Below, piece after piece: positions 39,930 through 40,155 of a stretch of 64,000 bases of DNA (position 1 is the first letter of the stretch; each line of letters opens with the position of its first letter). A program made the position numbers and the translations under genes. This DNA comes from a virus. The notes under the pieces are model-generated. The model was not told the origin of the DNA. It did no database searches and was given only the letters and a program-made list of their open reading frames with translations. Location of the stretch: the IMG/VR virus record IMGVR_UViG_3300024054_000008, positions 62,001-126,000 of that record; one strand, written 5' to 3'.

Positions 39930-40155
39930 GGAGAGAAACAAATTGACGTATGCTGGTTCAAGTCCAGCGGCCCTGGCAATGGATATAACCAAAGTGCATT
40001 TTGCGCAACCAGCTGCATGCCCAACAGACCAGCAGTGGGCACAGGACAGATAGTCCGAGTCCCGTGTGGTTTCTGGTTGCGTAAATCACGGTTATGCCCG
40101 TTGCCAGGGCCTCGTCTAAAGGCAGGACGCGTCTCTCTCAGAGATAAAGCTCTCC
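39930..40155 (+). tRNA. Circularly permuted tRNA gene 2 (3' half before 5' half)
   Basis: 3' half: anticodon-stem strand GACG (39945-39948), T arm GCTGG-TTCAAGT-CCAGC (39952-39968), acceptor GGCCCTG (39969-39975), G73. 5' half, 125 bases later: acceptor CAGGGCC (40105-40111), TC, D arm GTC/GAC with A14, GG and A21 in place (40114-40128), anticodon-stem strand CGTC (40130-40133). Acceptor pairing is 7/7 and extends to 14 bp (GGCCCTGGCAA with TTGCCAGGGCC, then TGG with CCG/C). The flanks pair too: GGAGAG (39930-39935) with CTCTCC (40150-40155). The 5' half supplies C32-U33 followed by CTC-A, so Glu (CUC) is possible but unproven because the join is unknown. Confidence 0.72.
39983..40095 (+). 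ncRNA. Long hairpin between the halves of permuted tRNA 2
   Basis: The spacer folds back almost completely: ATAACC (39985-39990) with GGTTAT (40090-40095), then CGCAACCAG (40003-40011) with CTGGTTGCG (40073-40081). At the tip are TGCCCA/TGGGCA and GGAC-AGATA-GTCC. It continues the extended acceptor helix of tRNA 2. This could be a processing signal (RNase III/RNase P or self-cleaving), but I match it to no known ribozyme. Confidence 0.5.

What the first reader, a model, noticed from the sequence alone, without database searches (positions are those of the whole stretch)
39930..40155. Second permuted tRNA directly downstream
An independent T arm and acceptor 3' strand (GGCCCTG) precede by 125 bases the matching acceptor 5' strand (CAGGGCC) and a canonical D arm with A14, A15, GG and A21. 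The acceptor helix extends to 14 bp, and the flanks GGAGAG/CTCTCC pair. Two permuted genes with the same layout in tandem make chance unlikely.
Basis: partly seen in the sequence, partly recalled or inferred. Interest (0 to 1): 0.85.

Follow-up and report, generated by a model that had tools for sequence, protein, structure and literature searches.

The report
Tandem tRNA-mimic RNA beside DUF7873 gene
Two tRNA look-alikes with their halves in reversed order sit in one structured RNA just behind a gene of unknown function, and the same gene-plus-RNA pair recurs in many phages and bacteria, so this looks like an undescribed RNA-protein particle rather than a pair of working tRNA genes.

Summary
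At 39952-40128 a T arm and 3' acceptor strand precede the matching 5' acceptor strand and D arm, with the flanks paired. A scan for this layout finds exactly two hits in the window, adjacent and on one strand, against 1 hit in 100 shuffles.

Both elements lie in the untranslated stretch behind a DUF7873 (PF25283) gene (38907-39716). The same gene is followed by the layout in 74 of 80 viral contigs and 78 of 80 bacterial contigs (upstream control 0 of 80). A covariance model built without the window finds 39911-40174 at 57.5 bits. In the family 28 of 30 pairs show two-sided changes. The spacing between the two modules is nearly constant. Homologues have no anticodon loop, no obligatory CCA and a capped acceptor stem.

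This is the architecture of bacterial Y RNA (YrlA); members score weakly against Rfam YrlA, but Ro60 is usually absent. Best reading: a two-headed, YrlA-like tRNA mimic that partners DUF7873. The function is inferred.

The parts
38907..39716 (+). DUF7873 (PF25283) protein gene; the conserved domain starts near 38970
   Evidence: Pfam E 3e-81; 37-46% identical relatives in viral contigs and 43-49% in bacteria; confident AF2 model, pLDDT 95.3
39722..39902 (+). Element 1 (first tRNA-mimic module) with its paired flanks; outer limits approximate
   Evidence: Scan hit; fold; partial match to model R2, 31.5 bits; position relative to the stop codon and to element 2 as in homologues
39791..39814 (+). 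Element 1 T arm and acceptor 3' strand (GCATG-TTCGAAT-CGTGC, CCTCCAC), followed by GCCA
39833..39859 (+). Element 1 acceptor 5' strand (GTGGAGG) and D arm (GCC..GGC)
39911..40174 (+). Element 2 (second tRNA-mimic module, the finding), full-length match to the type-2 covariance model
   Evidence: R2 57.5 bits, E 8.3e-12 in 3,001 bases; the window was not in the training set
39921..39928 (+). AATCGACC: conserved 5' internal-loop motif of the type-2 stem
   Evidence: Consensus GATCGACCG of 26 homologues; position; R2 alignment
39930..39935 (+). P2 5' strand GGAGAG, pairs with 40150-40155
   Evidence: helix 2 of the family covaries
39952..39975 (+). Element 2 T arm and acceptor 3' strand
39976..40104 (+). 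Apical extension of the acceptor stem: a long hairpin in place of a free CCA end
   Evidence: Fold; loops of 4 to over 100 nt in homologues
40105..40128 (+). Element 2 acceptor 5' strand (CAGGGCC) and D arm (GTCT-AAAGGCA-GGAC)
40150..40164 (+). P2 3' strand CTCTCC and 3' internal-loop motif AAACCGTTG (family UUAAACGCCG)
40204..40240 (+). Strong hairpin followed by a T-rich tail, possible end of the transcript
   Evidence: Fold; not picked up by the simple terminator scan

Best explanation
The finding is the second of two modules of one noncoding RNA encoded directly behind a DUF7873 gene. Each module imitates the elbow of a tRNA (T arm, capped acceptor stem, D arm, upper part of the anticodon stem) in circularly permuted order, because the RNA's own 5' and 3' flanks form the stem that replaces the anticodon arm. 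This is the architecture of bacterial Y RNAs (YrlA). SHOWN: layout, covariation, conserved pairing with DUF7873 in phages and bacteria, fixed spacing of the two modules, no decoding loop. INFERRED: the conserved stem with its internal-loop motif (AUCGACC / UUAAACG) is the handle for the DUF7873 protein. The two tRNA-like heads then dock on cellular proteins that bind tRNA (nucleases, PNPase-like enzymes, tRNA-modifying enzymes), so that the particle tethers or sequesters them, as Rsr with Y RNA does for PNPase.
For: Two layout hits in tandem, 1 in 100 shuffles. DUF7873 is followed by the layout in 74 of 80 viral contigs and 78 of 80 bacterial contigs, upstream control 0 of 80. Model R1, trained on 23 phage elements, finds 79 of 80 bacterial loci at 63.6-118.7 bits, 48 of 57 other viral loci at 49.8 bits or more, 7 of 7 loci and 5 of 6 further phages. 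R2 finds the window element full length. Covariation: 28 of 30 pairs changed on both sides, score 0.835 against at most 0.183 for slid partners. Spacing between modules: bacteria median 90 (87-95), viral 93.5 (84-120), window 92. Rfam YrlA matches type-2 elements in 5 of 7 loci, E 1e-6 to 0.07, and Phendrix, E 1.4e-6. Ro60 domain absent in 35 of 39 records. No other neighbour gene family is conserved in the 80 bacterial loci. YrlA architecture and the RYPER particle as described in passages of PMC8394870 and PMC7790460.
Against: No binding, expression or processing data exist here. DUF7873 has no recognisable RNA-binding fold and is not basic overall (median pI 6.5). The window's own elements do not match Rfam YrlA at E up to 10, and all YrlA matches elsewhere are below the gathering score. 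The RNA could be a 3' untranslated regulatory element of the DUF7873 message. Matches limited to the T-acceptor-D core are not diagnostic: two ordinary neighbouring tRNAs reach 29.7 bits with R1, close to element 1's 31.5 bits with R2.
Confidence: 0.6

Rival explanations
1. Circularly permuted tRNA genes: RNase P and a 3' nuclease free the acceptor ends and a ligase joins the flanks into an anticodon or variable arm, giving working tRNAs.
For: Canonical T arm, D arm and 7-bp acceptor; an anticodon-stem-like helix between the flanks in 18 of 47 and 27 of 49 phage elements against 6-9% for mismatched partners; GCCA after the 3' acceptor strand of element 1 and NCCA in 24 of 47 and 21 of 49 phage elements; the phage record has an RtcB gene.
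Against: U33 not kept (6 of 18, 9 of 27, 2 of 43, 2 of 58), NCCA in only 19 of 63 and 6 of 62 bacterial elements, contiguous anticodon arm in 1 of 221; acceptor loops of 4 nt or closed hairpins; RtcB in only 6 of 39 records; conserved internal-loop motifs outside the tRNA body.
Confidence: 0.08
2. The RNA is a 3' untranslated control element of the DUF7873 message: the tRNA-like heads are cut by RNase P or bound by DUF7873 itself, setting message stability and autoregulating the gene.
For: Nearly always behind the gene on the same strand; median distance stop to first T stem 97 (viral) and 100 nt (bacteria); no other conserved neighbour.
Against: Two modules with nearly fixed spacing and deep covariation over the type-2 element are more than a control element usually needs; Ro60-linked YrlA-like RNAs in 3 of 4 phage regions examined show a similar module beside another protein gene.
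Confidence: 0.15
3. Decoy: the tRNA look-alikes titrate tRNA-cutting nucleases or toxins of hosts and rival phages, and DUF7873 stabilises or presents the decoy.
For: Frequent in phage tRNA clusters; missing anticodon loop and capped acceptor would make it uncuttable; a competitive-inhibitor role for YrlA is raised in PMC7790460 (passage).
Against: Also a single chromosomal copy in 70 of 150 Streptomyces genomes; no PADLOC match for the protein; no direct test.
Confidence: 0.12
4. RNA-antidote toxin pair: DUF7873 is a toxin held in check by the structured RNA.
For: Two-component gene-plus-RNA module, patchy distribution (70 of 150 Streptomyces), present on phages.
Against: No nuclease or toxin family match; the RNA lies downstream, not as repeats upstream; one copy per genome.
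Confidence: 0.05

Closest known systems
YrlA, bacterial Y RNA (Rfam RF02553), partner of Rsr/Ro60
   Same: Basal stem made by the RNA's ends, then T arm, capped acceptor stem and D arm in permuted order (architecture in PMC8394870; model structure line); type-2 elements score weakly but significantly against it
   Different: Two modules at fixed spacing; stem motifs AUCGACC/UUAAACG not seen in the six stretches with Ro60-linked YrlA-like RNAs examined; partner gene DUF7873 instead of Ro60; all scores below gathering
Permuted tmRNA (Rfam RF04321)
   Same: Acceptor 3' strand before acceptor 5' strand
   Different: Acceptor is a capped hairpin; best match 19.3 bits, E 0.067; a tag frame was not looked for
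Circularly permuted tRNA genes of algae and archaea (recalled)
   Same: Order of the halves
   Different: No kept anticodon loop and no obligatory CCA

Membership tests
Bacterial Y RNA (YrlA) | tRNA-like module with T, acceptor and D arms closed by a stem of the RNA's ends | tested here: met
   Covariation, full-length model matches
Bacterial Y RNA (YrlA) | Rfam RF02553 score at or above gathering (69 bits) | tested here: not met
   Best 44.7 bits; window none at E up to 10
Bacterial Y RNA (YrlA) | Linked to a Ro60/Rsr (TROVE) gene | tested here: not met
   TROVE in 4 of 39 records, not in the window's record
Bacterial Y RNA (YrlA) | Ro60-binding motif GNCGAAN0-1G in the 5' stem strand (motif recalled) | tested here: inconclusive
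   0 of 49 phage type-2, 13 of 62 bacterial second elements; but also absent from six stretches with Ro60-linked YrlA-like RNAs
Bacterial Y RNA (YrlA) | Physical complex with a protein partner | not testable with these tools
   No binding data
Circularly permuted tRNA gene | Permuted order of acceptor halves | tested here: met
Circularly permuted tRNA gene | Anticodon loop with U33 after joining | tested here: not met
   U33 in 6 of 18, 9 of 27, 2 of 43, 2 of 58 elements with the helix
Circularly permuted tRNA gene | Processable acceptor end (encoded or added CCA) | tested here: inconclusive
   NCCA in 70 of 221 homologous elements; CCA could be added; capped hairpins argue against
Permuted tmRNA | Match to RF04321 at gathering | tested here: not met
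   19.3 bits against 47 in Phendrix; window none
DUF7873 (PF25283) | Pfam cut-off 27 bits | tested here: met
   273 bits

The most novel reading that the evidence does not exclude
A second, Ro60-independent class of Y-RNA-like particle: DUF7873 is a new RNA-binding protein family whose dedicated partner is a two-headed tRNA-mimic RNA, carried by phages of several bacterial phyla and by many bacterial chromosomes, and used to recruit or block tRNA-handling enzymes.
Probability: 0.5. Interest if true: 0.82.

Novelty: new variant of a known kind. Interest (0 to 1): 0.72.

Why it matters
Y RNAs are known as partners of Ro60. A widespread RNA with the same tRNA-mimic logic, doubled, and tied to an uncharacterised protein would show that tRNA mimicry has been paired with more than one protein scaffold, and would give a function to a protein family of unknown role. 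The isolated Gordonia, Rhodococcus and Arthrobacter phages that carry it, and Streptomyces species with a single chromosomal copy, make the question directly testable.

Tried and rejected
Anticodon CUC in element 2: the 5' piece of the window element reads CGTCT-CTCTCAG-AGATA, which I first took for a tRNA-Glu arm; only 1 of 221 homologous elements has a contiguous 5-7-5 arm, so I treat it as chance. Anticodon CAA in element 1: same verdict.

YicC-like endonuclease for DUF7873: one of 8 members matched PF08340 at E 9e-4, none of 67 at E up to 0.1; dropped. Two genuine YicC loci were fetched but not compared.

Fold relatives of DUF7873: no Foldseek hit at E up to 0.001 in PDB or BFVD; best VIA-align row 3kdq_A, Z 7.9, rmsd 8.4 over 145 residues, in the range the tool calls ambiguous. 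No PDB sequence relative (best E 2.5), no convincing PHROG or NCBIfam match and no PADLOC match.

Close DNA relatives of the window: none (pattern scans 14 and 25, no match, no relative of the ThyX-like neighbour).

Literature: 'permuted tRNA' with phage or bacteriophage, DUF7873, YrlA/Ro60/phage, Y RNA/tRNA mimic, tRNA-like/actinobacteriophage, mycobacteriophage/Ro60, split tRNA. The search listings showed no paper on this module; the three primary Y RNA papers looked up are not held. Papers seen only as passages: PMC12282133, PMC7790460, PMC9569102, PMC8394870.

Type-1 stem: RNAalifold placed no pairs in the flanks of element 1 homologues; CTNAR repeats there are conserved but their pairing is unresolved. 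Alignment A6 was made and not used.

Rows dropped: A2 holds 67 sequences: seven loci with in-frame stops in the fetched range (L016, L023, L024, L051, L060, L072, L085) were left out, duplicates merged, and L054 and L065 not entered. A3 used 26 of 27 short-loop type-2 elements (L040 dropped, cut by its contig end). A4 used 30 of 37. A5 used 23 of A3's 26 (L050, L071, L088 dropped). A7 used 18 of 20 long-loop elements plus 8 short. Some viral loci are near-copies (L023/L024, L031-L033, L055/L086, L091/L093, L059 and Phendrix), so counts of loci are not counts of independent lineages. The 80 viral and 80 bacterial loci are the best-scoring 80 of 299 and of at least 527.

Full report
1. What is there. 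Folded as one RNA, 39900-40240 has a z-score of -7.1 with 0 of 100 shuffles as stable, and the MFE structure contains T arm, acceptor, D arm and the GGAGAG/CTCTCC flank helix; the acceptor stem runs on into a long apical hairpin. The same scan found nothing more in the other fetched stretches of the record.

2. Where it is. The window is part of a 182,739-bp IMG/VR virus record with tailed-phage replication and lysis genes. The gene just upstream, 38907-39716, is DUF7873, PF25283. An ordinary CTA-anticodon tRNA follows at 40253-40327.

3. The same pair elsewhere. A distant relative of the gene in another viral contig is followed by two hits, as is the one in isolated Gordonia phage Phendrix. 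An alignment-based scan of viral contigs kept the best 80 of 299 relatives: 74 of 80 have at least one and 44 at least two hits of a somewhat looser scan within 1.5 kb downstream. In bacterial genomes the best 80 of at least 527 relatives were kept (Streptomyces, Nocardia, Lentzea, Ktedonobacter, Myxococcales, Acidobacteria, Chloroflexi and others): 78 of 80 have hits within 1 kb downstream, and 0 of 80 have one in the 1 kb upstream. These scans look for the layout, so they cannot by themselves exclude other arrangements.

4. Independent models. R1 was built from 23 phage type-2 elements without the window. It matches 79 of 80 bacterial loci at 63.6-118.7 bits, 78 of them full length (L165 has no match and L150's lies on the other strand). 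It matches 48 of 57 remaining viral loci at 49.8 bits or more, including L042 and L068, which the layout scan had missed. Seven of seven loci match (23.9 to 107 bits; Phendrix is a near-copy of a training row). Five of six more phages match (Gordonia Keelan, two Rhizobium, Klebsiella, Pseudanabaena; 41-71 bits), while the Microcoleus phage gives only 17.5 bits far downstream. R1 itself stops at the long apical hairpin of the window element (15.4 bits). R2, which includes long-loop homologues but not the window, matches 39911-40174 over its full length at 57.5 bits, E 8e-12 in 3 kb. Caveat: core-only matches are weak evidence, since two neighbouring ordinary tRNAs give 29.7 bits with R1.

5. 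Structure and covariation. On A3, 28 of 30 predicted pairs keep pairing through changes on both sides; on the trimmed A5, 93.7% of cells pair, the covariation score is 0.835 against at most 0.183 for slid partners, and 0 of 500 shuffles reach it. Type-1 homologues give 13 of 16 pairs for T arm, acceptor and D arm, but no resolved flank stem. Type-2 has two flank helices separated by a loop with AUCGACC on one strand and UUAAACG on the other. The distance from the first D arm to the second T stem is 87-95 in 48 bacterial loci, 84-120 in 40 viral loci and 92 in the window, so the two modules look like parts of one RNA.

6. Not decoding tRNAs. An anticodon-stem-like helix between the flanks is real in phage elements (18 of 47, 27 of 49, against 6-9% for mismatched partners), but the next bases do not keep U33, and NCCA follows the acceptor in 24 of 47, 21 of 49, 19 of 63 and 6 of 62 elements. 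In bacteria the mismatched-partner control is itself high (0.53 and 0.67) because the sequences are related, so the helix counts there carry little weight. Loops run from 4 nt to long hairpins.

7. Nearest known kind. Rfam YrlA matches Phendrix element 2 (37.1 bits, E 1.4e-6) and, at a much weaker level, element 1, and type-2 elements in 5 of 7 further loci (28.0-44.7 bits), all below the gathering score of 69. The window shows no YrlA match. YrlA is described as a basal stem plus a tRNA-like domain with D, T and acceptor arms; Rsr binds the stem and PNPase the tRNA-like domain (PMC8394870, passage; see also PMC7790460). Y RNAs in phages are not new as such: PMC12282133 (passage) cites them in mycobacteriophages and suspects them in a Listeria phage. 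Ro60 (TROVE) is present in 4 of 39 records that carry DUF7873, not in the window's. In three of those four, YrlA-like RNAs lie in the stretch fetched around the TROVE gene and score 28.1-49.3 with R1; six such stretches lack the two DUF7873-type motifs. Where both are present, each protein therefore seems to have its own RNA.

8. The protein. AF2 gives a confident model (pLDDT 95.3, pTM 0.73) of long helices and a long beta hairpin, with no clear structural relative. Invariant residues cluster in AVKxARxxAN, and HPAQ is nearly invariant. It is in 70 of 150 Streptomyces genomes, one copy each, and no other neighbour family is conserved in 80 bacterial loci.

9. Reading. I commit to a DUF7873-RNA particle in which the motif-bearing stem is the protein handle and the two tRNA heads recruit or block tRNA-binding enzymes. 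Existence of the RNA family, its pairing with the gene and its fold are supported by computation here; protein binding, expression and function are inferred. I file it as a new variant of the Y-RNA kind, not as a member of YrlA: the gathering score and the Ro60 link were tested and not met.

Noticed in passing
window 40253-40327: Ordinary tRNA with anticodon CTA (amber-reading) directly behind the permuted pair; TAG ends only 4 of 38 larger ORFs checked.
   Followed up: partly
L006 18266-18521 and 18916-19144 (window's own record): Two group I introns within the phage's tRNA cluster.
   Followed up: no
window 33386-35332 and 28421-29863: Homing-endonuclease-like proteins that also match Mom-type families.
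   Followed up: no
window 13345-14136 (-) and 14750-15826 (+): The NAD-dependent ligase gene at 14750-15826 ends after the OB fold; an ORF on the other strand nearby looks by eye like its missing C-terminal part, so the ligase may be split.
   Followed up: no
G000:C1:30595-31716: The phage record encodes an RtcB RNA ligase.
   Followed up: no
L183 4499-5088: A phage with both Ro60 and DUF7873 carries three YrlA-like RNAs in tandem near its Ro60 gene.
   Followed up: partly
L150 2777-2954: In one Anaerolineae contig the type-2 RNA lies on the opposite strand away from the DUF7873 gene.
   Followed up: no
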